From NCBI GenBank assembly GCA_023379435.1, contig JAMCUH010000037.1, forward strand, positions 1-39,662: 39,662 nucleotides of DNA, written 5' to 3'. This document shows, one piece after another, positions 561-13,586 of the stretch. Position 1 is the first letter of the stretch; every line of letters begins with the position of its first letter. The translations under genes were made by a program, and so were the position numbers. The notes beneath the pieces are model-generated. The model made no database searches. It saw only the letters and a list, made by a program, of their open reading frames with translations, and was not told where the DNA came from. This stretch comes from Thermoplasmatota archaeon (GTDB lineage: Archaea; Thermoplasmatota; Thermoplasmata; Thermoplasmatales; Thermoplasmataceae).

Positions 561-1325
561 ATGAAGGGAGGAGTCATAACCATTGGTAATGAAATTCTAA
601 AGGGGAGAACTGTAAACACCAATGCTGCTGAGATCGGGAGAGTTATGTATTTCTCAGGATATGAAGTGTTTAGGGGGATAGTTGTTCCAGATGATCCGCA
701 GGAGATTGCATATGCTTTCAGGGAATGTCTGAATGTCTGTGACGTTATCATTTCATCAGGCGGTCTCGGCCCAACATTTGATGATATGACCATTCCAGCA
801 TTTGCTAAAGCTTTTAATCTGGATTTGAAACTGGACGATTATTACTATAACCGGATAAAGGAAAGTTTTTCAAGGCTGGGCCTGCCCATGACTGAAGAGA
901 GGAAAAAAATGGCCATGATTCCTGAAAACTCTACTCCCATCGAAAATAATGTGGGTAGTGCACCAGGTATAGAGTGCACGATTCAGGGGAAAAGAGTTTT
1001 CATTCTTCCCGGTGTACCTGCAGAAATGAGATCAATGCTTAAGGTGATCGGAAAAAAGATCAAGCTTTCAGATTCCTTCTATTCCGAAAAAAGCATTGTT
1101 GTTAAAGGGATCTATGAAAGTACCATTTCTCCTCTGGTAAAGAGGATCATGAGAGAACATGGCAATGATGTCTACATAAAGACTCATCCAGGAATGGAAA
1201 ATGGCGTATCTGTTATTGAGATTGAGGTTTCTGCAAAATCCAAAAGAGAGGATGAGGCAGAAAAAAATGCAGAAAATGTTCTCAAAGAAATTGAGGAGGA
1301 ATGCAGGAAACTTTCAAATCCTTGA
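561..1325 (+). CDS. CinA-like molybdopterin-binding-domain protein (COG1058 type)
   Basis: The 254-residue protein matches the N-terminal MoaB/Mog-like domain of CinA. Visible features are the opening GNEILKGRTVNTNAAEIG, then ISSGGLGPTFDDMT (about residues 65-78), then VFILPGVPAEMRSML (about 150-164). These are the conserved loops of this fold. The bacterial C-terminal NMN-deamidase domain is absent, as is usual in archaeal stand-alone versions of about 250 residues. The substrate of the archaeal form is not established; a pyridine-nucleotide or ADP-ribose role is only inferred from the bacterial family. The ATG at 561 is the only possible start, because an in-frame stop lies at 516-518 with no start codon in between. 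The 3' end overlaps a small minus-strand gene by 12 bases. Confidence 0.85.
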   Translation: MKGGVITIGNEILKGRTVNTNAAEIGRVMYFSGYEVFRGIVVPDDPQEIAYAFRECLNVCDVIISSGGLGPTFDDMTIPAFAKAFNLDLKLDDYYYNRIKESFSRLGLPMTEERKKMAMIPENSTPIENNVGSAPGIECTIQGKRVFILPGVPAEMRSMLKVIGKKIKLSDSFYSEKSIVVKGIYESTISPLVKRIMREHGNDVYIKTHPGMENGVSVIEIEVSAKSKREDEAEKNAENVLKEIEEECRKLSNP

Positions 1326-3731: not shown

Positions 3732-4025
3732 TTATCTCTTCTCGAACGTCATCATTTTTCCGTCCGAAAACGTCCTGAAATAATATTTGAACTCCTCATC
3801 ACCTTTCCTGGCAACGCAGTTCCTTCCCTTACTGTAATTTCCATGTAACTCTATACTGTCTATATGTTCCCACCCTGTATTCTCCTTGACCTTTGCGACC
3901 ATACCCTCAAATGCATCGGCGCACAGGTTGCAACAGAACAGCATGTTATCGCCGTCAATTTCCCTGTAATACTCTCCCCATGTGGCATTGCATAGCGCAC
4001 ATCCTTCAGTGTTGTTTGTTTTCAA
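3732..4025 (-). CDS. Ta0938-like small zinc-binding protein
   Basis: The 97-residue protein starts with a cysteine cluster, C9-x2-C12 followed by C31-C32-x2-C35, which should bind zinc. The rest is a compact alpha/beta segment ending in FRTFSDGKMMTFEKR. It resembles Thermoplasma acidophilum Ta0938, a structurally studied protein of unknown function; that match is from memory. The best start is TTG at 4025, because a GAGGTGA Shine-Dalgarno lies about 9 bases upstream. This places the start inside the last codons of the preceding zinc-finger/heme-oxygenase-fold gene, with a 20-base overlap, so the two are translationally coupled and probably act together. Confidence 0.7.
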   Translation of the reverse strand: MKTNNTEGCALCNATWGEYYREIDGDNMLFCCNLCADAFEGMVAKVKENTGWEHIDSIELHGNYSKGRNCVARKGDEEFKYYFRTFSDGKMMTFEKR

Positions 4026-4896
4026 TCATTTCACCTCTCTTCATCCTGGCAAAAAGGTAATCGTAAAGTCTGTCAAGTGAGGCAAGAGCAATGGCCTGGC
4101 AGGGCTGTTCAAGGGAAAGTGTCTCAGAATACTTATCGATGAGATCCATTGCCTCACCGGCATGGTAAACATCCGCCTCGTAACCCTCCCTGAGGAACGC
4201 CACCGTTTCTCCGGATATCGAGTTATCCTGCAGAATTTTGGGATCGAAATACGGCATGCTTGCACCGTATTCCTTCATTCTTCTGTCGGCAATCAGTTCC
4301 ATGGAGTGCATTGCGCTCATACCTTCGACGAAAGAATACTTCCTGCACACCATGTCCCAGAAGGATATTGCCGAAGAGGTTGCAGTTAAAGGTACAGTTT
4401 CATATATATCCTTACGGGATGCGCCATAGGATTCCGCCATCCTCAGAAGAAGTTCGTGATGCGAGGGTGTCTTATCGGTGCCATACCACTCCGACACGAT
4501 GTTGGATATTTCATAGTGCTGGACATCCTCCATATCTGTATTTGCAATTATGAGGGAACAGCTCTTCACCCACTGCTTCAGAAAATGGTGATGCTCAAAC
4601 GCATATCCCAGAAGGAGATATTTGTCCGGGTGCTGCATCCTCACTATATAAGGATGAGGATCCTTCCCAAAGAATTTGTCCCTCATCCTTCCGATTATCC
4701 AGAGTGACACCTTATCATATTTGAAGAAATTCCTGAGTGAATCAGAAAGCTCAGTCATTCCCTTTCTTTCTGGTGAAATGTAGCGATTCAACCACATTAC
4801 ATGGGCAGCGTCGCTCTTCTCCTGCAGAAGAAGAAAATGTTCAGCCATGTGCCTATAACTCCCAACTTGAGCAAAACAGGCAGGACATTTCAACAT
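4006..4896 (-). CDS. C2H2 zinc finger fused to a heme-oxygenase-fold (PqqC/HDO-like) domain
   Basis: This 296-residue protein has two parts. Residues 4-20 form a zinc finger of pattern C4-x2-C7-x8-H16-x3-H20. Residues of about 30-285 are all-helical and carry the landmarks of the TenA/PqqC heme-oxygenase-like fold: E101-H102-H103-H104 in the early core helix, E136 and H146/H147 in SEWYGTDKTPSHHELL, E200, then D242-x2-H245 followed by D251. In heme-oxygenase-like diiron oxidases, Glu/His/Asp at these places bind two irons. That makes an oxidase role likely, but the ligand assignment is my inference and the substrate is unknown. It is first in a coupled pair with the Ta0938-like protein. An AT-rich TATA-like box (AAAATCATATAG) lies about 30 bases upstream of the ATG. 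Confidence 0.62.
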   Translation of the reverse strand: MLKCPACFAQVGSYRHMAEHFLLLQEKSDAAHVMWLNRYISPERKGMTELSDSLRNFFKYDKVSLWIIGRMRDKFFGKDPHPYIVRMQHPDKYLLLGYAFEHHHFLKQWVKSCSLIIANTDMEDVQHYEISNIVSEWYGTDKTPSHHELLLRMAESYGASRKDIYETVPLTATSSAISFWDMVCRKYSFVEGMSAMHSMELIADRRMKEYGASMPYFDPKILQDNSISGETVAFLREGYEADVYHAGEAMDLIDKYSETLSLEQPCQAIALASLDRLYDYLFARMKRGEMIENKQH

Positions 4897-5560: not shown

Positions 5561-6886
5561 GTGCCACCTGACGGGAAAAGAAAGAGGAGACAGAAGAATC
5601 CTGACGGTAGCATGCCAGCCATCAAATTCGCTGTCAAAAATGATGGCACGAGTGGATATCACAGGATGCTCATAAAAATAACACCACCGGACGGTATCAC
5701 AAGGGTGGATGCTGCCTACATATCTCCATCTGGGAGCAGGTGGATGCAGAAGGCAAAGAGGATCAACGATACAGACTATGAAATAAACGTAAAACGTGAC
5801 GAAGAGGGAGAATTTCTGACATCCATAGCTGCTTATAACAGTAAGGGCATAGTGAATATGATCACGGGAAATTATTCCTTCATGCCCGGTTCAAAGAGCA
5901 GGGGACAGGAGAGAAGAAAAACACAGATCCTGGAAATACCAGATCCTCCACCGGAGATCAGGAATGGAATCATCAGAACATGGCCAGTATCGAGCGCCTA
6001 TTCCAAATCCCTGCAGAATGTCAGTTACTCAATATCCGAGAAGTATCCAGAGCTGAGGGAATCGAAACTCGTTGCCAACCCCAACGTGAAATTCACATCA
6101 TACATACATGGTTCGGGGAATTTTGGTGTTGTTTTCAAGATAGAGAGAAGCGGTAATTTCCATGCCGTGAAGTGCTTCACCAGGGCGTCTGCAGATATAG
6201 CTGAGAGATATTATTTCCTTAGCGCCTACCTTTCTAAGGCAAATCTACCCTTCCTTGTCAGCTTTAATTATCTAACTGATGCGGTGAGAGTCGTGTCAAA
6301 GCCGAAGGATTACTTTCCAGTTCTTGTGATGGACTGGGTGGAGGGCCAGACACTGAACCAGTTCATCATATCAAACCTTCAAAATTCTGAACTGCTCAGG
6401 AAGTTTGCAGCTGGTTTCATAGCAAGTGTTGAAAAGATGCAGTCACTTGGTATAGCACATGGTGATCTATCAGGGGACAACATACTTGTTGATGATACCG
6501 GCTCCCACAAATTCATTGACTACGACGGCATGTTTGTTCCTCCCCTTTCAGGTAGAAAGTCACAGGAAAGCGGTCACGAGCACTTTCAACATCCTGGAAG
6601 AACGGATGAATTCACGGGCAAACTGGATAATTTCTCAGCACTTGTCATATATCTATCCATTCTAGCCGTATCTGAGAATCCCGAGATGTGGGGCTATAAC
6701 GGTGAAGATCAGGACCGGCTCATTTTTTCCTCTTCAGACTTCAAGGATCCTGAAAATTCAAAACTTTTCTCTGATCTTAATAAAATGAGCAAAAGAATCA
6801 GGAAGCTTTCCGCACTAATGCAGGAGGCACTGAAGCAGAAACCACTGTGGGAAGGTATTTCCCCATCAGTAATCAGGAATCAGTGA
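5561..6886 (+). CDS. YegI-type protein kinase of a TerY-P-like triad
   Basis: This 441-residue protein has a beta-rich N-terminal domain (about residues 20-110, Ig-like in character) joined to a divergent Ser/Thr protein kinase. Kinase motifs are the glycine loop GSGNFG (184-189), the ATP-anchoring Lys204 in HAVKCF, the catalytic loop HGDLSGDNIL (300-309, Asp302 and Asn307) and a metal-binding DYDG (320-323) in place of DFG. The activation segment with ESGHEHFQHPGR and LDNFSA is characteristic of the kinases that travel with PP2C and VWA genes, such as E. coli YegI. The next two genes are exactly a PP2C and a VWA protein, encoded convergently with a 14-base tail overlap. GTG at 5561 is used here; ATG at 5612 is an alternative. 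The TATA-like ATGTATAATG at about 5538-5547 suits the GTG start. Confidence 0.82.
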   Translation: MPPDGKRKRRQKNPDGSMPAIKFAVKNDGTSGYHRMLIKITPPDGITRVDAAYISPSGSRWMQKAKRINDTDYEINVKRDEEGEFLTSIAAYNSKGIVNMITGNYSFMPGSKSRGQERRKTQILEIPDPPPEIRNGIIRTWPVSSAYSKSLQNVSYSISEKYPELRESKLVANPNVKFTSYIHGSGNFGVVFKIERSGNFHAVKCFTRASADIAERYYFLSAYLSKANLPFLVSFNYLTDAVRVVSKPKDYFPVLVMDWVEGQTLNQFIISNLQNSELLRKFAAGFIASVEKMQSLGIAHGDLSGDNILVDDTGSHKFIDYDGMFVPPLSGRKSQESGHEHFQHPGRTDEFTGKLDNFSALVIYLSILAVSENPEMWGYNGEDQDRLIFSSSDFKDPENSKLFSDLNKMSKRIRKLSALMQEALKQKPLWEGISPSVIRNQ

Positions 6887-7595
6887 TAAGCCTCACAAAT
6901 GTGAGATCATCATTTCTCATTCTTCTCTCCCTCACTTCCTTTGTGAAGATCTCCCTGAGATCACCTTCTCCTGCGACAATATCCCATGAATCGGGAAAGA
7001 ACTGAATTATCCATTTTGAGACCGAATCTGTTGCCACGATTACGGAATCGTCTGGCTTCAGGTAGAAATCCTTGATGAGAAATTCAGGAAGATTCCACCT
7101 ATAATCACCTGTGAACGGTGCACCATATCCACTCCAGACGAGCTTTGGTGTAATGTTGAAGTCCTCATATCTGGTAAGCGGAAATGATATGAGAGAGTCG
7201 TTCCTCTTGATTAGCAAACATGAATCGCCAACAGAGAGAGCCCTTGCGTGTCTGAACTCAGGGCCATCCAAGGATTCAAGAAAAATTACTGTTGAATATG
7301 ATCCGGCAACAGCCTTGTTCTTGATAAACAGTCGAAGTGAGTCCCAGTCAATTTCACTGTGCCATTTTGTTCTTGCATTATTTATCAAAAGATCAAGAAA
7401 ATTGTTCTGCCGGAGAGATAGATCACTGTTCACGTATGAGCTCACAAGTGCTCTTGCCCATAGACCGGAAAAAATAGAATCACTGGCACCGTCAGCAACT
7501 GCTACCTTCCCCTTCTCGGTATTGAAGGCATAGGCGTCTTCCGACTCCACGGAGGAGTTGCCAAGCTTTGGAGATGTGAATGCTTTCACTATCAT
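6873..7595 (-). CDS. PP2C-family protein phosphatase of the triad
   Basis: This 240-residue cytoplasmic PP2C/PPM phosphatase has the metal-binding acids in place: E19-D20 in SVESEDAY, D35-G36 in VADGASDS, G123-D124 in SVGDSC, D190 in ATDSVSKW (the usual DG is DS here) and N228-D229-D230 in RNDDLTF. It should reverse phosphorylation made by the neighbouring kinase; this pairing is known for the YegI/YegK/YegL and TerY-P type modules. Its ATG overlaps the stop of the VWA gene by 4 bases (ATGA), so the two are co-translated with VWA first. Its 3' end overlaps the convergent kinase gene by 14 bases. It is close to the minimal size for the family, without extra domains. Confidence 0.86.
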   Translation of the reverse strand: MIVKAFTSPKLGNSSVESEDAYAFNTEKGKVAVADGASDSIFSGLWARALVSSYVNSDLSLRQNNFLDLLINNARTKWHSEIDWDSLRLFIKNKAVAGSYSTVIFLESLDGPEFRHARALSVGDSCLLIKRNDSLISFPLTRYEDFNITPKLVWSGYGAPFTGDYRWNLPEFLIKDFYLKPDDSVIVATDSVSKWIIQFFPDSWDIVAGEGDLREIFTKEVRERRMRNDDLTFVRLITDS

Positions 7596-8416
7596 CTCAT
7601 GAGCGATGATACAGCCCTTGTGCCAATGTCAAGAAGCTTTATGAGATCCTCTAGCTGAGCGTTGAAGACGTATCCCCTGGCTCCTCTCTCTATGTCCTTG
7701 TACTCCTCCCTGGCAATAGCGAGCATGGCCTCTGGGAGCTGGCTTGACATCTGGAACATCTGTTTCGCATACTTTTCCTCAGGAAGAGATGTTTCGGAAT
7801 TTGGGAAAAGAACTGGAGTAACAGTTGCACCGGAGAGGTGACAGTTCCATGTGAGAACGTACCCGTCCTCCGTTGAAAGTGATCTGAGATCGTTCATTGC
7901 TTCAACGGGATCTCCGTCAGTTGCCTCTCCATCCGTTATATTGATAACGATGGGAGGGAACGATTCCTTGTGGCTATCAATCCATTGTGAAATCCAGTCC
8001 TTGGCCATGCTTATTGCCTTCACCATGGGGGTGTCGCTGGCGGCCACGGGGTTAAACCAGATGGGGAAATCATATTCTATCTCCTCGCCCTCGATCTGCT
8101 GTTTCCTCTTCTCAACGGTGAGAATCCTGGATTCTAAGTCAGATATGGGAAGGATGGTTGCATCTTTCAACAGTGATATTGCTGTGTCCCTCTTTGCACC
8201 ATATCCTATGATTCCAACATCAAAATAATTCCTTACACCGTCTGATTTTGTGCATCTGTTCACTATCTCGTTGAGGTTATTGTTCACAGCATCAGCTGCC
8301 TCCTCTGCTTTTGATCTGACTCCTCCACCGATCTTGTGGCTCATGGATCTGCTCTGATCTATGAGAAAAACAAACAGGCCCGGCCTATCTCGACTAATCT
8401 CCTGATCGTATGTCAT
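7592..8416 (-). CDS. VWA-domain protein (TerY/YegL-like) of the triad
   Basis: This 274-residue protein is almost entirely a von Willebrand A domain. The metal-ion-dependent adhesion site is intact: D20-x-S22-x-S24 in LIDQSRSM, Thr129 in ASDTPM, and Asp162 in NITDGEATDGDP. No signal peptide or membrane helix is seen, so it is cytoplasmic. VWA proteins of this type (TerY, YegL) are thought to act as metal-dependent protein scaffolds paired with a kinase and a PP2C. It is the first gene of a two-gene unit, overlapping the phosphatase gene by an ATGA. A promoter with TATA-like TTTTTTATATAG lies about 30 bases upstream of the ATG. Confidence 0.85.
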   Translation of the reverse strand: MTYDQEISRDRPGLFVFLIDQSRSMSHKIGGGVRSKAEEAADAVNNNLNEIVNRCTKSDGVRNYFDVGIIGYGAKRDTAISLLKDATILPISDLESRILTVEKRKQQIEGEEIEYDFPIWFNPVAASDTPMVKAISMAKDWISQWIDSHKESFPPIVINITDGEATDGDPVEAMNDLRSLSTEDGYVLTWNCHLSGATVTPVLFPNSETSLPEEKYAKQMFQMSSQLPEAMLAIAREEYKDIERGARGYVFNAQLEDLIKLLDIGTRAVSSLMR

Positions 8417-8435
8417 AGATAAGTATTGGGCACCT

Positions 8436-8449
8436 CTATATAAAAAATT
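8436..8449 (-). promoter_or_regulatory. TATA-box promoter of the VWA-PP2C unit
   Basis: On the minus strand the sequence TTTTTTATATAGAGG lies about 25-30 bases before the ATG at 8416. This is the usual archaeal TATA distance for a leaderless or short-leader transcript. No other TATA-like element is seen in the 76-base gap. Confidence 0.5.
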
Positions 8450-8492
8450 TTGTCTGCCAATATTTATATTGTCATATTAATTACAATGGATT

Positions 8493-9353
8493 TCATGTTC
8501 TGAACACAACATGTTCCAGAGAACCGTCGAGGTAATTCCTAAGACTCGTAGCTGCCCTTTTCAAATATACCGGTTCGAATTCGGAACCCATACCTGCAAT
8601 ATGGGGCGTCGCAATGCAATTATCCGGAACGTCGTCTGCTATGACGGGTTCGTTCCACCATACATCAGTGAGGTAGAATTTATCTGGGTTTTCCCTGAGA
8701 TATGAAAGCATATCTTCTTTTTTCACAATGTCTCCTCTTGCAACATTTACAATAATGTTGCCACGGAATTGATCAAGGAGTTTTCTGTTGACCATTGATC
8801 TTGTTTCTGAGGTCAGGGGAACGCTTATGACAACTATGTCTGATCCCCTCATGAGATCATCTGGAGATTCGGCAAACTCAGTTACATGGTCACTTTTTCT
8901 GGATCGGGAATATGCAAGCACGTGCATGTCCATTGAATTGGCAATAACCCCAACTTTTTTTCCTATTCCACCATAACCGAGAATTCCAATGGTTTTCCCA
9001 TACAATATGGAAACCTCGAGCCTAGTGAATTTCTTCCTGTGGAATTCTTCGTTGTGTTTACATATCTCTTTCAGATGGGACAGTATCAGAGCAAATACCG
9101 TTTCTGCCACTGGTTCATTGTAGCCTCCGGCATTGCTCAACAGAACCGATCCTTTTGGAAACATTTCAGGAAAAAATCTGTCATTTCCAGCCGACATGCT
9201 CTGGAATATCCTGGCATTCCTCCACTTCCCTGGATCTCTTCGAAAAATTACAGCCTCAGCCTGGTCCGGCTCGGAAACGTATTCAAGCCCAGTTATCTCA
9301 ATACATTCTTCCTTCAAGTCATCCGGCAGATCAAGGTCTATGGAAAATTTCAT
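8493..9353 (-). CDS. D-isomer-specific 2-hydroxyacid dehydrogenase
   Basis: This 286-residue NAD(P)-dependent oxidoreductase reduces 2-keto acids to D-2-hydroxy acids, or the reverse. The Rossmann motif GILGYGGIGKKVG spans about residues 125-137. The substrate-binding Arg is in NVARGDIV, the helper Glu region is DVWWNEPV, and the catalytic His is in ATPHIAG, near the C-terminus. It is somewhat shorter than the usual 310-330 residues, mainly at the N-terminal substrate domain. Specificity (glyoxylate, hydroxypyruvate, phenylpyruvate or other) cannot be read. It stands alone, with the triad promoter downstream and a long gap upstream. Confidence 0.88.
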   Translation of the reverse strand: MKFSIDLDLPDDLKEECIEITGLEYVSEPDQAEAVIFRRDPGKWRNARIFQSMSAGNDRFFPEMFPKGSVLLSNAGGYNEPVAETVFALILSHLKEICKHNEEFHRKKFTRLEVSILYGKTIGILGYGGIGKKVGVIANSMDMHVLAYSRSRKSDHVTEFAESPDDLMRGSDIVVISVPLTSETRSMVNRKLLDQFRGNIIVNVARGDIVKKEDMLSYLRENPDKFYLTDVWWNEPVIADDVPDNCIATPHIAGMGSEFEPVYLKRAATSLRNYLDGSLEHVVFRT

Positions 9354-9825
9354 TCATGAAAATCATAAGAGATCTTAAGTAATTTCCTTAAGAAAAAAAG
9401 GTATATCTGTTAAACTCGCTTAAAATTTGGAGGGCATCGTCAGGAACTCTCACTGACCTGTTTTATCAATGAATGTGATTTGCAAAAAAGTATATCCTAA
9501 AGCATACCTCGGTCGCATACAGTATCATTGTATATTCGATCGTAAATTGGCAGGGAACAGCATTATTGTTATAATACAATAACTGAAGAAGTGCATCTTG
9601 CGCAGGATAAGAGTAAAATGAAGAACATATAATGAAATACCATTATCCAAGAAACAGATTACCTTACAAAAATATAGAATTAATAGAACCTTTATACCGC
9701 CATAACAACAGTAAAAAAAGGGCTCAACGCTGGAATCCTTACCTATGGTTTTTTGTTTTTTTTTTTGAAAAAATAAAATTCTTCATACCATAGACTCAGT
9801 TTCAGGAATTTCTGATTAGCTGGGA
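9354..9825. other. AT-rich intergenic region, no gene seen
   Basis: This region is AT-rich with frequent stops in all frames. It holds a near-palindrome around 9562-9577 (ATTGT, 6 bases, ACAAT) and a hairpin-like element with CTATGGT at 9744-9750 and ACCATAG at 9786-9792. The latter encloses an 11-base T run followed by an A-rich run. I see no Shine-Dalgarno followed by an open frame and no RNA signature. Confidence 0.45.
9744..9792. repeat. Imperfect inverted repeat around a T/A tract
   Basis: CTATGGT at the left is answered by ACCATAG at the right, and the interior is T-rich then A-rich, so the whole segment could fold into a long imperfect hairpin. It could be a terminator-like element or a relic of a small mobile repeat. 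Nothing in the window repeats it. Confidence 0.35.
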
Positions 9826-10134
9826 GTGATAATTATTACCAATATCTCCCTCTCGCCGGTATGCAACCTGACCAAATTTTTCTATTCCAATGATCTCGGC
9901 AAATCCCATGAAGAGGTTGAGGATTCTTTTGGTATTCTAAAACTGGGGATGTGTATTCGACTCAGGAACTTTCAACTTGCTCTTCATATCATTAGATCGA
10001 TCCAAGAAGAAAGAACAGTTTCCATACAATTGTTGTGGAGAAGGAACTTTCCAGACTATCACAACTGTATAATGAGGAATTCATTAAATATACGGATTAA
10101 GAATGATTGTTCAGCTTTAGTGACGCCTAATTGA
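9826..10134 (+). pseudogene. Possible decayed transposase fragment (doubtful)
   Basis: A 102-codon frame opens at GTG 9826. The segment FYSNDLGKSHEEVEDSFG followed by ILKLGMCIRL (about residues 19-46) recalls the C-terminal part of IS4/IS1634-group transposases, where a conserved Glu sits in an 'IEdsFRilKs' motif. The rest of the frame does not look like any protein I know, and the other two plus frames are also briefly protein-like (for example VVEKELSRLSQLYNEEFIKY near 10037-10096). This suggests frameshift decay. No terminal repeats or target duplications are visible. It may equally be non-coding. Confidence 0.25.
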
Positions 10135-10233
10135 TCTGATGATATCATGAATCTGCCAAAAATATTTTTTAATATTTCTTATAAGCTGCTAAGTAATATC
10201 TATATGTAAAATGGATATTAAGAGTGAAACACC

Positions 10234-10830
10234 ATGAGGAGTGTGGAAATGTTTAAGCTGCATGCAAAGGCTCATCTCCCGACATTATTTGGGGATTTTG
10301 AAATATATGTATTTGATGATGATGGTGACCCTTCTGAACACGCTGTTCTTGTGAAGGGTGATGTGTACAATGCCGATTCTGTTCCAGTCAGGATACATTC
10401 AGAATGCCTCACTGGTGATGTTTTCGGTTCAAAACGCTGTGACTGCAGGGAGCAGCTTGTGAAATCCCTTGAAATGCTTTCGTCTATGGAGAGAGGAATT
10501 CTCATATACCTCAGGCAGGAAGGAAGAGGTATAGGCCTCAAGAATAAGATCAAGGCCTACAGTCTTCAGGAGAATGGTTTCGATACAGTGGAGGCAAACC
10601 TTGCCCTCGGGTTGCCCGTTGACAGCAGGGATTATACATTTGCCATAAATGTTCTTCACTACTTTGGAATATCCAGAATCAAGCTTATGTCCAACAATCC
10701 TCTCAAGTTCCAGTTCTTGCAGGAAAATGGCATTGATGTTATAGAGAGAATACCGCTCATAACTGATCCCAGACCGGAGGATAAGTTTTATTTGGAAACA
10801 AAAAGAAACAGGATGGGACATCAGCTGTGA
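10234..10830 (+). CDS. ribA: GTP cyclohydrolase II (riboflavin synthesis)
   Basis: This 198-residue enzyme opens the imidazole ring of GTP, releasing formate and pyrophosphate, as the first step of riboflavin synthesis. The zinc ligands are Cys58, Cys69 and Cys71 in [16 protein letters not shown]. The GTP-binding RQEGRGIGL spans 94-102, and the catalytic Tyr109 is in KIKAYSLQ. Length equals the bacterial monofunctional enzyme (about 196-200). Most archaea use the unrelated GTP cyclohydrolase III, so a RibA-type enzyme here is notable and suggests an old transfer from bacteria. ATG at 10234 is chosen; ATG at 10249 is an in-frame alternative. The glucose dehydrogenase gene follows after 31 bases. 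Confidence 0.92.
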
Positions 10831-10861
10831 TGTTTAAAATACTCCACTAATATATTCTGGC

Positions 10862-11938
10862 ATGGTTCATGCACTGCTTACAAATGCCCCGGGAGGCGGC
10901 ATTGATTACAGAGATGTGATAATAGAGGAAGAAGAGCATGATCTTGTTCTGAGCCCTTTATACACAGGAATATGTGGAACAGACAGGGGAATAGTAAATG
11001 GATCGCTGAACTTTGCGAAAAACCCCGAAAAGTCAGATTACCTTGTTCTTGGTCATGAATCTGTGTGTGTTGTGAGGGATTCATCAAACAGTCAATTCAA
11101 GGAAGGCGATCTTGTTGTGCCTCTTGTGAGGAGACCAGGTAACTGCCCAAACTGCCTCATAGGAAGGCAGGACAACTGCTCTGATGGAAATAAGAAAGAG
11201 GCTGGAGTAACGGGAAAGCATGGATTCATGCGATCCAGGTTCAATGAGGATTCCCAATTTGTTGTAAGAATTGACGATCCATACATGGAAAAAATTTCTG
11301 TCCTGACTGAACCCCTGAAGAACGTTGTGAAAGGATTTGAGGTGATTGAAACCATTTCAAAAAGATCTGTTTACGCAGGCGCTGACTCTTCATTCACAAA
11401 CAAGAACTGTGTTGTAATCGGTACAGGAACAGAGGCTTTTCTCTACGGTATCATGTCTTCAGAGTATGGATTCAACACTGCCCTCACGAATAGGCACCCC
11501 CTCAGCAGAGAAAAAATGGATCTAATTTCGGATTTCTCACTGAATTTTTTTGACTATTCCACTGATATTGCTTATCCCTTTAAAAGCGAAATTGATCTTG
11601 TTATCGACACAAGTGGCGACCCGGCAACTGTATTGAAATTTCTGCGGCTCATGAACTACAACGGAATTTTCCTTTTCTTCGGGACAAATGGCAAGGCACC
11701 AGCTTCCAGCATCAATGGAAATGATATTGATCACATAGTGGAGAGGAACATCACAATTGCCGGAAGCGTTGATGCGGCAAAGGTACATTACATAAGAGCA
11801 GTTAAATACCTAAAGAGATGGTTCAAATCTTTACCCGTTGAAAGTATTATCACTGGGGAATATAGGCCTGAATACACTGAAATATTCAAGAAAAAGCCTG
11901 AGGATGAGATCAAATCTGTCATAAAGTGGGGGGAGTAG
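10862..11938 (+). CDS. gdh: Glucose 1-dehydrogenase, zinc-dependent (Thermoplasma type)
   Basis: This 358-residue medium-chain dehydrogenase oxidises glucose (and often galactose) to the lactone with NAD(P)+, the first step of the Entner-Doudoroff route in these archaea. Catalytic zinc ligands are Cys38 in GICGTDRG and His65-Glu66 in LGHES. The structural zinc lobe carries C95, C98 and C106 (NCPNCLIGRQDNC) and lacks the first of the usual four cysteines, as I recall for Thermoplasma acidophilum GDH too. The nucleotide motif GTGTEAFLYG is at about 187-196. The conserved blocks LTEPLKNV, VDAAKVHYI and FLFFGTNGKAP follow the Thermoplasma enzyme closely. Its end overlaps the FolD frame by 13 bases. 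Confidence 0.92.
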   Translation: MVHALLTNAPGGGIDYRDVIIEEEEHDLVLSPLYTGICGTDRGIVNGSLNFAKNPEKSDYLVLGHESVCVVRDSSNSQFKEGDLVVPLVRRPGNCPNCLIGRQDNCSDGNKKEAGVTGKHGFMRSRFNEDSQFVVRIDDPYMEKISVLTEPLKNVVKGFEVIETISKRSVYAGADSSFTNKNCVVIGTGTEAFLYGIMSSEYGFNTALTNRHPLSREKMDLISDFSLNFFDYSTDIAYPFKSEIDLVIDTSGDPATVLKFLRLMNYNGIFLFFGTNGKAPASSINGNDIDHIVERNITIAGSVDAAKVHYIRAVKYLKRWFKSLPVESIITGEYRPEYTEIFKKKPEDEIKSVIKWGE

Positions 11939-12786
11939 ATAAGTTGCTTCTTGAAGGCAAAGGGATTGCAGACAGGATAATGTTGGAGCTTTCATCTGCT
12001 GCCAGAGATATGGAAGAGAAGAGCGGATCAAGGCCAAGACTTGATCTTATTCTTGTGGGTGATGACCAGGGTGCGAGGATATATTCCCAGGCAAAGATGA
12101 AGCGTGGTAAAAAGATTGGGTGCGACGTAACACTGACAGAGCTGCCTGAGGATTCATCCATGAAAGAGGTGAGTTCCATCATAGGGGAAAAATCCTTAGA
12201 TCCAGATATCCATGGCATCATGATTGAGAATCCTGTTCCGAAAAATCTCTCCATATCGGAGCTTGCAGATCTGATACCATACTATAAGGATGTCGATGGA
12301 ACAGGCTCAATGAATCAGGGTCTAATTGTTTCAAAGAAGGAATTTCTGGTGCCGGCAACGCCAGCTGCTGTTGTGGAAATTCTCACCACTTTCGGCATTA
12401 ATGGTACCGTAACAATAGTGAATAGATCACCAGTTGTCGGAAGACCTCTTGCAGGCATGTTACTGAACAGGGATTATACCGTGACGGTATGCCACAGCAA
12501 GACACCCGACCTGAAAAAATACACAATATCCTCCGATATCATTGTCACTGCTGTTGGTCATGCATCTTATTTCGATGCATCATATTTTTCTCCAGAATCG
12601 ACGGTGATAGATGTTGGTATCAACTACGTTGATGATAAGGTAGTTGGTGACGTAAAGTTCGATGATGTATCGAAACAGGTGAAAAATATCACGCCTGTTC
12701 CAGGAGGGGTTGGGCCAATAACGGCCACGCTCATATTCAGAAATCTGATCACTTCCTTCAGGTATCAGTTTTCCAAAAGACAGTGA
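11926..12786 (+). CDS. folD: FolD: methylenetetrahydrofolate dehydrogenase/cyclohydrolase
   Basis: This 286-residue bifunctional enzyme interconverts 5,10-methylene-, methenyl- and 10-formyl-tetrahydrofolate. The catalytic Tyr53 and Lys57 lie in RIYSQAKMK. The cofactor-binding region has VNRSPVVGRPLAG, and the C-terminal signature PVPGGVGPIT is intact. The frame opens with GTG at 11926, overlapping the end of the glucose dehydrogenase gene by 13 bases; TTG at 11944 is an alternative start. The overlap implies co-translation with glucose dehydrogenase. The link between the two is unlikely to be metabolic beyond shared pyridine-nucleotide use. Confidence 0.92.
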   Translation: MGGVDKLLLEGKGIADRIMLELSSAARDMEEKSGSRPRLDLILVGDDQGARIYSQAKMKRGKKIGCDVTLTELPEDSSMKEVSSIIGEKSLDPDIHGIMIENPVPKNLSISELADLIPYYKDVDGTGSMNQGLIVSKKEFLVPATPAAVVEILTTFGINGTVTIVNRSPVVGRPLAGMLLNRDYTVTVCHSKTPDLKKYTISSDIIVTAVGHASYFDASYFSPESTVIDVGINYVDDKVVGDVKFDDVSKQVKNITPVPGGVGPITATLIFRNLITSFRYQFSKRQ

Positions 12787-12821
12787 CAGTCTTACACAAA
12801 CTCAGGAATTGAGAAATTATA

Positions 12822-12839
12822 TTAATATTTATAATATAA
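12822..12839 (+). promoter_or_regulatory. TATA-box region of the nadE unit
   Basis: The AT-rich run with ATTAATATTTATAATA ends about 10-15 bases before the ATG at 12849, and its centre lies about 20-25 bases upstream. This fits an archaeal TATA box giving a leaderless or nearly leaderless message for nadE and the antiporter. Confidence 0.45.
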
Positions 12840-12848
12840 AGTCAGACA

Positions 12849-13586
12849 ATGAGTGATTCTGTTCTTCTCAACGAAATTCACGTTATCGAAAATTTTCTGA
12901 AGGAGAAGATAGGTAAAAAAAGAGCTGTGATCGGAATCAGCGGTGGTATTGACAGCTCCCTTGTTTTGACACTCCTGTCAAACAGTATTCCTGTTAGTAA
13001 TATCATGCCATTCTTTCTTCCTGAAAAAAGAACGCCTGAATCTGATTTCAGAGATGTTGAAACACTTTGCAAGAGTCTTTCCATTCCGTATGAGACCATC
13101 TTCATTGACCCCATTTCAGAATCTTTCAAAAAAGTGTTAAAACCACCCAGAAGGGAACTGGATGGTAACATAAAAGCAAGGGTTAGGATGACAATTCTGT
13201 ATGAAAAGGCGAATGAGAACGACGGTTTGGTCATAGGCACAACAAACTATTCTGAATACATGACCGGATACTTTACAAAGTACGGAGATGGCGCCTGCGA
13301 TATTGAGCCAATCCTTCATCTTAAGAAGAGCGATGTCAGGAAACTTGCAGCACTCATGAGAGTGCCTGAGAGCATTCTTTCCAAAAAACCGAGCGCAGGT
13401 TTGTGGGAGGGGCAATCTGATGAGGAAGAGATGGGCATAACATATGATGAGATAGACAGGATCCTTTCGCTTATGGATTCTGGTAAGACGGAAGACAATG
13501 ATACATATAGAAAGGTCGAAGAGATGGTAAGGGTAAGTTTTCACAAGAGGATCCAGCCTGAGAATCTGCTTTCCCAGAGGAAGTAG
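12849..13586 (+). CDS. nadE: Ammonia-dependent NAD+ synthetase
   Basis: This 245-residue enzyme converts deamido-NAD+ to NAD+ with ATP and ammonia. The PP-loop motif SGGIDSS is at 31-37 with the preceding VIGI strand. The second region GTTNYSEYMTGYFTKYGD and the substrate-binding SAGLWEGQSDEEEMG are well conserved. There is no glutaminase domain, so it is the short ammonia-using form, of normal length for archaea. The antiporter gene begins 6 bases after the stop, so the two form an operon. Confidence 0.93.
   Translation: MSDSVLLNEIHVIENFLKEKIGKKRAVIGISGGIDSSLVLTLLSNSIPVSNIMPFFLPEKRTPESDFRDVETLCKSLSIPYETIFIDPISESFKKVLKPPRRELDGNIKARVRMTILYEKANENDGLVIGTTNYSEYMTGYFTKYGDGACDIEPILHLKKSDVRKLAALMRVPESILSKKPSAGLWEGQSDEEEMGITYDEIDRILSLMDSGKTEDNDTYRKVEEMVRVSFHKRIQPENLLSQRK

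What the first reader, a model, noticed from the sequence alone, without database searches (positions are those of the whole stretch)
5561..8416. Archaeal kinase-PP2C-VWA phospho-signalling triad (YegI/YegK/YegL, TerY-P type)
Three adjacent genes encode a divergent kinase with the HGDLSxxN and DYDG motifs, a complete PP2C phosphatase and a VWA protein with an intact metal site. This combination is known from bacteria, where it accompanies stress or tellurite-type systems, and is poorly studied in archaea. Here it stands alone without Ter genes. It makes a closed write/erase/scaffold module whose target and trigger are unknown. The kinase carries a beta-rich N-terminal domain that may be the sensor or substrate-recruiting part.
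Basis: partly seen in the sequence, partly recalled or inferred. Interest (0 to 1): 0.72.

Follow-up and report, generated by a model that had tools for sequence, protein, structure and literature searches.

The report
Archaeal phospho-switch with swappable front end
Three neighbouring genes (a protein kinase, a phosphatase that can undo its work, and a metal-site adaptor protein) form a compact signalling cassette related to a bacterial stress and anti-virus module; one family of acid-loving archaea keeps one copy per genome, has turned the kinase gene around and swaps the kinase's front end, but what the switch controls is unknown.

Summary
Window 5561-8416 encodes a protein kinase (+), a PP2C phosphatase (-) and a VWA/TerY protein (-), all with intact active sites. 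They match the three TerY-P triad models (TerY 7e-82, STK_OB 1.7e-55, PP2C 9e-22), not E. coli YegI/PphC. (1) The triad is single-copy in 23 of 23 near-complete genomes sampled from this archaeal family outside one clade of three genera, and in none sampled from other families of the phylum. (2) Gene order is fixed: VWA then PP2C, with the kinase convergent (41/41 archaeal loci). All bacterial relatives with a visible kinase (30/30) are co-directional. (3) The C-terminal OB fold or zinc ribbon of bacterial TerY-P kinases is missing. Instead there is an N-terminal module of one of three unrelated kinds: beta-sandwich-like (here), PH-like, or 2-6 transmembrane helices. (4) The triad tree rejects the species tree, yet VWA+PP2C and kinase trees agree and sort by module, so cassettes appear to move between genera whole. 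Most likely it is a TerY-P-derived phosphorylation switch whose input module is exchanged. Flanks are housekeeping genes, no TerD exists, no virus carries it. Target and trigger are unknown; antiviral function is unproven.

The parts
5561..6886 (+). TerY-P-type Ser/Thr protein kinase, 441 aa (GTG start; ATG at 5612 is a possible alternative start)
   Evidence: Pfam Pkinase 4.6e-12; PADLOC STK_OB 1.7e-55 over profile 6-288 of 562 only; kinase fold by AlphaFold/Foldseek
5618..5881 (+). N-terminal beta-sandwich-like module of the kinase (residues 20-107, 7 strands), 'type A'
   Evidence: AlphaFold model, pLDDT about 70-87; homologous in 6 genera, replaced by PH-like or transmembrane modules in 9 others
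5981..6016 (+). invariant WPxxxxYxxxxQ motif (W141-Q152) that marks where bacterial relatives begin
   Evidence: W/P/Y/Q in 39/39 archaeal kinases that reach it; P 29/30 and Y 30/30 in bacteria, where the motif lies at the N-terminus
6458..6529 (+). kinase catalytic motifs HGDLSGDN (300-307) and DYDG (320-323); VAIK lysine is K204
   Evidence: K204, H300, G301, D302, N307, D320, Y321, D322, G323 in 40/40 archaeal kinases
6873..7595 (-). PP2C-type protein phosphatase, 240 aa
   Evidence: PADLOC PP2C 9.3e-22; D20, G36, D124, D190, D229, D230 in 41/41 relatives and D35 in 40/41
7592..8416 (-). TerY-like VWA protein, 274 aa, intact MIDAS metal site
   Evidence: PADLOC TerY 7e-82; MIDAS D20/S22/S24/T129/D162 in 54/54 archaeal and 33/33 bacterial relatives
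6873..6886 (.). 14-bp overlap of the convergent 3' ends of kinase and PP2C
   Evidence: across the family from a 12-bp gap to a 23-bp overlap, most often 8 or 17 bp overlap
7592..7595 (-). 4-bp start/stop overlap of VWA and PP2C, suggesting co-translation
   Evidence: sequence; a 4-bp overlap is the commonest arrangement in relatives (14 of 41)
8437..8444 (-). TATA-box-like TTTATATA about 21-28 bases before the VWA start codon (inferred promoter, probably leaderless transcript)
   Evidence: sequence read only; not tested

Best explanation
It is a TerY-P-derived protein phosphorylation switch. The kinase is the writer, PP2C the eraser, and the VWA protein a metal-dependent peptide-binding partner (substrate, adaptor or effector of the switch). 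The kinase's N-terminal module, beta-sandwich-like here, decides where or when the kinase acts; in related genera a PH-like domain or transmembrane helices do this job. VWA and PP2C are made together from one strand and the kinase separately from the other, so writer and eraser doses can be set independently. The cassette, module included, has been exchanged whole between genera, and each genome keeps one. Shown: three genes with intact catalytic and metal sites, fixed linkage, convergent order, co-inheritance of all parts, module swapping, conflict with the species tree. Inferred: kinase and phosphatase activity, their acting on each other or a shared target, VWA peptide binding, sensing or localisation by the module, independent dosing, transfer as the cause of the tree conflict. 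Unknown: trigger, target, and whether the output is stress physiology or antiviral.
For: Family models for all three proteins. Catalytic residues near-invariant in 40-41 relatives. Single copy; all three present or absent together apart from fragmentary assemblies. Order VWA>PP2C><kinase in 41/41 loci while flanks differ between genera. VWA+PP2C and kinase trees have no strongly supported conflict, while both reject the species tree (triad: delta lnL 807, AU p about 1e-10; VWA+PP2C 580; kinase 226) and species data reject the triad tree (580, p 0.001). Module type changes twice on the triad tree, even on one built from VWA+PP2C alone, but six times on the species tree, no better than shuffled labels. 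Module folds: beta domain; PH-like, Foldseek E 2e-5 to GRK2 and 1.6e-4 to the TFIIH subunit PH domain; 2-6 predicted transmembrane helices. Literature: TerY-P is proposed to be a phosphorylation-dependent switch and MIDAS to bind extended peptides (PMC11090510, PMC7159879).
Against: No biochemistry. The canonical alpha-C glutamate is not conserved; an invariant R216-Y217 sits there instead, so the activation mechanism may be unusual. The species tree rests on seven genes of one RNA polymerase/ribosomal cluster. Ancient paralogy with loss, leaving exactly one copy per genome, could mimic exchange. That the N-terminal module is a sensor is inferred from position and variability only.
Confidence: 0.62

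Rival explanations
1. It is a stand-alone antiviral defence system, an archaeal TerY-P like the OB-fold version reported to protect bacteria from phage: the kinase module detects infection and phosphorylation triggers VWA-mediated shutdown or interference.
For: All three PADLOC TerY-P models match; stand-alone antiphage activity of OB-fold TerY-P is reported (PMC11090510 citing Gao et al. 2020); the cassette is exchanged between genera with swapped input modules, as expected under an arms race.
Against: The C-terminal OB fold or zinc ribbon, thought to contact nucleic acid, is absent. Retention is near-universal and single-copy (23/23 good genomes outside one clade) instead of patchy. Flanks are housekeeping genes, not a defence island. 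No phage or viral contig carries a relative.
Confidence: 0.27
2. It is a tellurite/metal (Ter) stress-response module, with the VWA sensing metal.
For: TerY-P triads were proposed to be metal-sensing switches (Anantharaman et al. 2012, cited in PMC11090510); the MIDAS site is intact.
Against: TerD is absent from all 61 family genomes tested; no metal-resistance gene was found among the ten flanking genes tested by Pfam.
Confidence: 0.06
3. It is the archaeal counterpart of E. coli YegI/PphC(YegK)/YegL.
For: Same three protein classes, co-localised: yegL, pphC and yegI lie on one strand.
Against: YegI and PphC are not hit at all by the archaeal HMMs, YegL at 15 bits only; YegI does not begin with the Y/WP..xY motif; the TerY model finds nothing in E. 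coli. The order is co-directional in E. coli.
Confidence: 0.05

Closest known systems
TerY-P triad (TerY VWA + PP2C + Ser/Thr kinase; OB-fold version of Gao et al. 2020, zinc-ribbon version in CoCoNuTs)
   Same: Homologues of all three proteins, same VWA-then-PP2C-then-kinase order, intact MIDAS and catalytic residues, the Y/WP..xY motif at the start of the kinase unit; archaeal VWA proteins 39-45% identical to bacterial ones
   Different: Kinase gene inverted (convergent) in all archaeal loci; no C-terminal OB fold or zinc ribbon; an extra N-terminal module of three kinds; kept as a single copy by a whole family
Triads of the GAP1-N2 conflict systems (Kaur et al. 2020, PMC7159879)
   Different: There part of larger GTPase-centred systems; here no GTPase or tubulin-like neighbour was seen among the flanking genes tested and the modules are N-terminal
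Alphaproteobacterial VWA/PP2C/kinase triads (e.g. Magnetospirillum loci L172-L181)
   Same: Kinase of about 321 aa also lacks the OB fold, so kinase-only versions exist in bacteria
   Different: No N-terminal module; co-directional genes; the PP2C is more divergent
E. coli YegI/PphC/YegL
   Same: Kinase + PP2C + VWA gene set on one locus
   Different: No sequence match for kinase and phosphatase, marginal for the VWA protein

Membership tests
TerY-P triad | TerY-like VWA protein with complete MIDAS (DxSxS...T...D) | tested here: met
   PADLOC TerY 7e-82, MIDAS residues present
TerY-P triad | Adjacent PP2C-like phosphatase with metal-binding aspartates | tested here: met
   PADLOC PP2C 9.3e-22; D35/D190/D229 conserved; Pfam PP2C_2 below cut-off
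TerY-P triad | Adjacent Ser/Thr kinase of the TerY-P type | tested here: met
   STK_OB 1.7e-55 over the kinase part; shared Y/WP..xY motif and RY in helix C with bacterial relatives
TerY-P triad | Kinase fused at the C-terminus to an OB fold or a zinc ribbon (as in the described subtypes, PMC11090510) | tested here: not met
   The profile match stops at 288/562; the protein ends about 142 residues after the HGD motif
TerY-P triad | Three genes co-directional (seen in all bacterial relatives here; not a published criterion) | tested here: not met
   Kinase convergent in 41/41 archaeal loci; co-directional in 30/30 bacterial loci with a visible kinase
TerY-P triad | Antiphage activity | not testable with these tools
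   needs infection assays
YegI/PphC/YegL | Homology of kinase and phosphatase to YegI and PphC | tested here: not met
   no hit at E<=10 with the archaeal HMMs
Ter-dependent stress response | TerD proteins in the genome | tested here: not met
   0 of 61 family genomes; controls B. subtilis and Deinobacterium positive
Protein kinase superfamily, active enzyme | VAIK lysine, catalytic Asp, Asn and DFG-type Asp | tested here: met
   K204, D302, N307, D320 in 40/40 archaeal kinases; alpha-C Glu not conserved

The most novel reading that the evidence does not exclude
One family of acidophilic archaea depends on a single TerY-P-derived phospho-switch whose input module is exchanged: three cassette lineages (beta-sandwich, PH-like, membrane) replace one another across genera by whole-cassette transfer, each genome retaining exactly one. 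That would be a bacterial conflict module turned into a near-essential archaeal signalling core.
Probability: 0.5. Interest if true: 0.68.

Novelty: new variant of a known kind. Interest (0 to 1): 0.54.

Why it matters
Eukaryote-like phospho-signalling in archaea has few defined writer-eraser pairs. This cassette is compact, present in cultured organisms (Thermoplasma, Thermogymnomonas) and comes in three natural versions differing in the input module, a ready-made comparison for finding trigger and target. It is also a case in which a module known as a patchy bacterial stress/defence system has become a fixture of an archaeal family while apparently still being exchanged between genera.

Tried and rejected
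Rejected: YegI/K/L membership; Ter-system membership; defence-island context (padloc and Pfam on ten window flanking genes and ten neighbours in other genera: only a generic UvrD helicase and a weak radical-SAM match); carriage by viruses or phages (plasmids only two cyanobacterial records). The same-genus genome G001 lacks the triad, but it is 76% complete and lacks close homologues of the window's flanking genes too, so no empty site could be shown. Anantharaman 2012 and Gao 2020 are not in the paper library; they are cited through PMC11090510.

Full report
Observation. Three intact genes lie at the stated place: a kinase at 5561-6886 (+), PP2C at 6873-7595 (-) and VWA at 7592-8416 (-). Pfam gives Pkinase at 4.6e-12 and only sub-threshold PP2C and VWA matches. 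The PADLOC models of the TerY-P system give TerY 7e-82, STK_OB 1.7e-55 and PP2C 9.3e-22. The STK_OB match covers only profile positions 6-288 of 562, so the OB part is missing. The geometry is not an operon: VWA and PP2C overlap by 4 bp on one strand; the kinase converges on them with a 14-bp overlap.

Host and distribution. The window is contig C37 of a 1.15-Mb, 69% complete genome. VWA is found in 47 of 101 relatives, kinase at full strength and PP2C in the same set, single copy, with exceptions explained by fragmented assemblies. Among family genomes at least 90% complete, 23 of 32 have VWA and PP2C; the nine without are all in three genera, g9, g18 and g19, which form one clade. In the phylum sample only this family has the VWA (19 of 293 genomes), and the PADLOC TerY model agrees across the order. 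Two complete genomes with the triad have exactly the lengths 1,564,906 and 1,584,804 bp, which I recall as T. acidophilum and T. volcanium; named Thermoplasma and Thermogymnomonas contigs carry it too. One exception lies outside the family: an assembly named Candidatus Sysuiplasma superficiale (another order in NCBI taxonomy; its RpoB falls outside the family) has a membrane-type cassette nested inside the family's VWA tree, which means transfer or a binning error.

Gene order. In 41 of 41 family loci the order is VWA>PP2C><kinase, while flanking genes differ from genus to genus. In bacterial relatives from the genome collection, 30 of 30 loci with a visible kinase have all genes in one direction. 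E. coli yegL-pphC-yegI is also on one strand. The kinase inversion is therefore specific to the archaeal lineage among the loci seen. The archaeal VWA proteins are monophyletic with support 1.00 against 32 bacterial loci plus YegL; which bacterial branch is closest is unresolved.

Kinase architecture. Bacterial kinases start at a Y/F/WP..xY motif (P 29/30, Y 30/30). The archaeal ones have the same motif as an invariant WPxxxxYxxxxQ, but preceded by 103-331 residues, and they end after the kinase lobe. The preceding part is of three kinds. Type A (g1, g3, g8, g12, g14, g17) is a beta-rich domain; in the window's AlphaFold model it has seven strands at residues 20-107 (pLDDT 82.5 overall, about 70-87 there). 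Type B (g4, g6, g10, g11, g13, g16) is PH-like, seven strands plus a C-terminal helix, pLDDT 84, with Foldseek matches to the GRK2 and TFIIH-subunit PH domains at 2e-5 to 2e-4, usually followed by a proline-rich linker. Type C (g2, g5 Thermoplasma, g15) has two to six predicted transmembrane helices. The kinase part matches solved protein kinases.

Active sites. Kinase K204, H300-G301-D302, N307, D320-Y321-D322-G323 and the helix-C residues R216-Y217 are present in 40 of 40 archaeal sequences; 12 of 30 bacterial ones have Arg in place of the VAIK lysine. PP2C D20, G36, G98, T102, D124, D190, D229 and D230 are in 41 of 41, D35 in 40. MIDAS residues are in 54 of 54. Selection keeps all three as working proteins.

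Inheritance. I built a species tree from seven linked RNA-polymerase/ribosomal-cluster genes (3009 columns) and compared it with the triad. Triad data reject the species tree (delta lnL 807, AU p about 1e-10), as do VWA+PP2C alone (580) and kinase core alone (226); species data reject the triad tree (580, p 0.001). VWA+PP2C and kinase trees have no strongly supported conflict, so the three genes travel together. The module type, not used for any tree, needs two changes on the triad tree, also on the VWA+PP2C tree, but six on the species tree, which is what shuffled labels give (mean 7.1). For example the window's genus (type A) and its sister genus g2 (type C) carry different lineages. The simplest reading is exchange of whole cassettes with their module between genera, one kept per genome; ancient paralogy with precise loss is not excluded.

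Context. The window flanks are metabolic and transport genes: MFS transporter, TENA/zinc-finger protein, hydroxyacid dehydrogenase, GTP cyclohydrolase II, FolD, NAD synthase. None matches a defence model; neighbours in other genera are likewise ordinary. No phage or viral-contig relative was found. TerD is absent from 61 family genomes.

Interpretation. PMC11090510 describes TerY-P as a VWA, PP2C and kinase with a C-terminal zinc ribbon or OB fold, proposed as a phosphorylation-dependent switch, the OB-fold version being a stand-alone antiphage system. [quoted passage not shown] The archaeal cassette works like that in its core but differs in gene geometry, in lacking the C-terminal nucleic-acid-type domain and in its interchangeable N-terminal modules. 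I call it a new variant of TerY-P. That it is a write/erase switch is likely (0.62). Whether it serves defence or physiology is open; family-wide retention and housekeeping surroundings favour physiology, cassette exchange favours conflict. I found no paper describing this archaeal form in the open library, which is incomplete.

Noticed in passing
L001 (G000:C48), kinase 104-1402 and PP2C 1408-2214: A second, unrelated kinase + PP2C tandem of the classical PknB/PrpC kind in the same genome, co-directional and with no VWA in the 3.5-kb locus seen.
   Followed up: partly
L135 (Candidatus Sysuiplasma superficiale contig JAGVSJ010000020.1) 6001-9259: Membrane-type cassette in an assembly assigned to another order, nested in the family's VWA tree: cross-order transfer or misbinning.
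   Followed up: partly
L150-L160 kinases: About 12 of 30 bacterial TerY-P kinases have Arg instead of the VAIK lysine (AVRCF), while the archaeal ones always have Lys; the two classes may differ in activity.
   Followed up: no
L159 (Chthonomonas calidirosea bin) 6001-13003: Three successive TerY-like VWA genes followed by PP2C and two kinases on one strand.
   Followed up: no
L067/L106 (Thermogymnomonas acidicola) and L148: Kinase reading frame interrupted in both; VWA also interrupted in L148 (low-completeness assemblies, so possibly sequencing errors).
   Followed up: no
window 4006-4896: Fusion of an archaeal C2H2-type zinc finger (PF16293) with a TENA/THI-4-type haem-oxygenase-like domain, next to a Ta0938/TRASH-like gene (3732-4025).
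   Followed up: no
window 561-1325 and L065:10666-11442: A MoCF/CinA-like gene lies within about 10 kb of the triad in genera g1, g5 and g12 but on different sides; chance or a trace of an older location.
   Followed up: no
L068 (G008) 1350-2081: A second, divergent TerY-P-type PP2C paralogue (26% identical) about 7 kb from the triad, with no VWA or kinase partner found at that spot.
   Followed up: no
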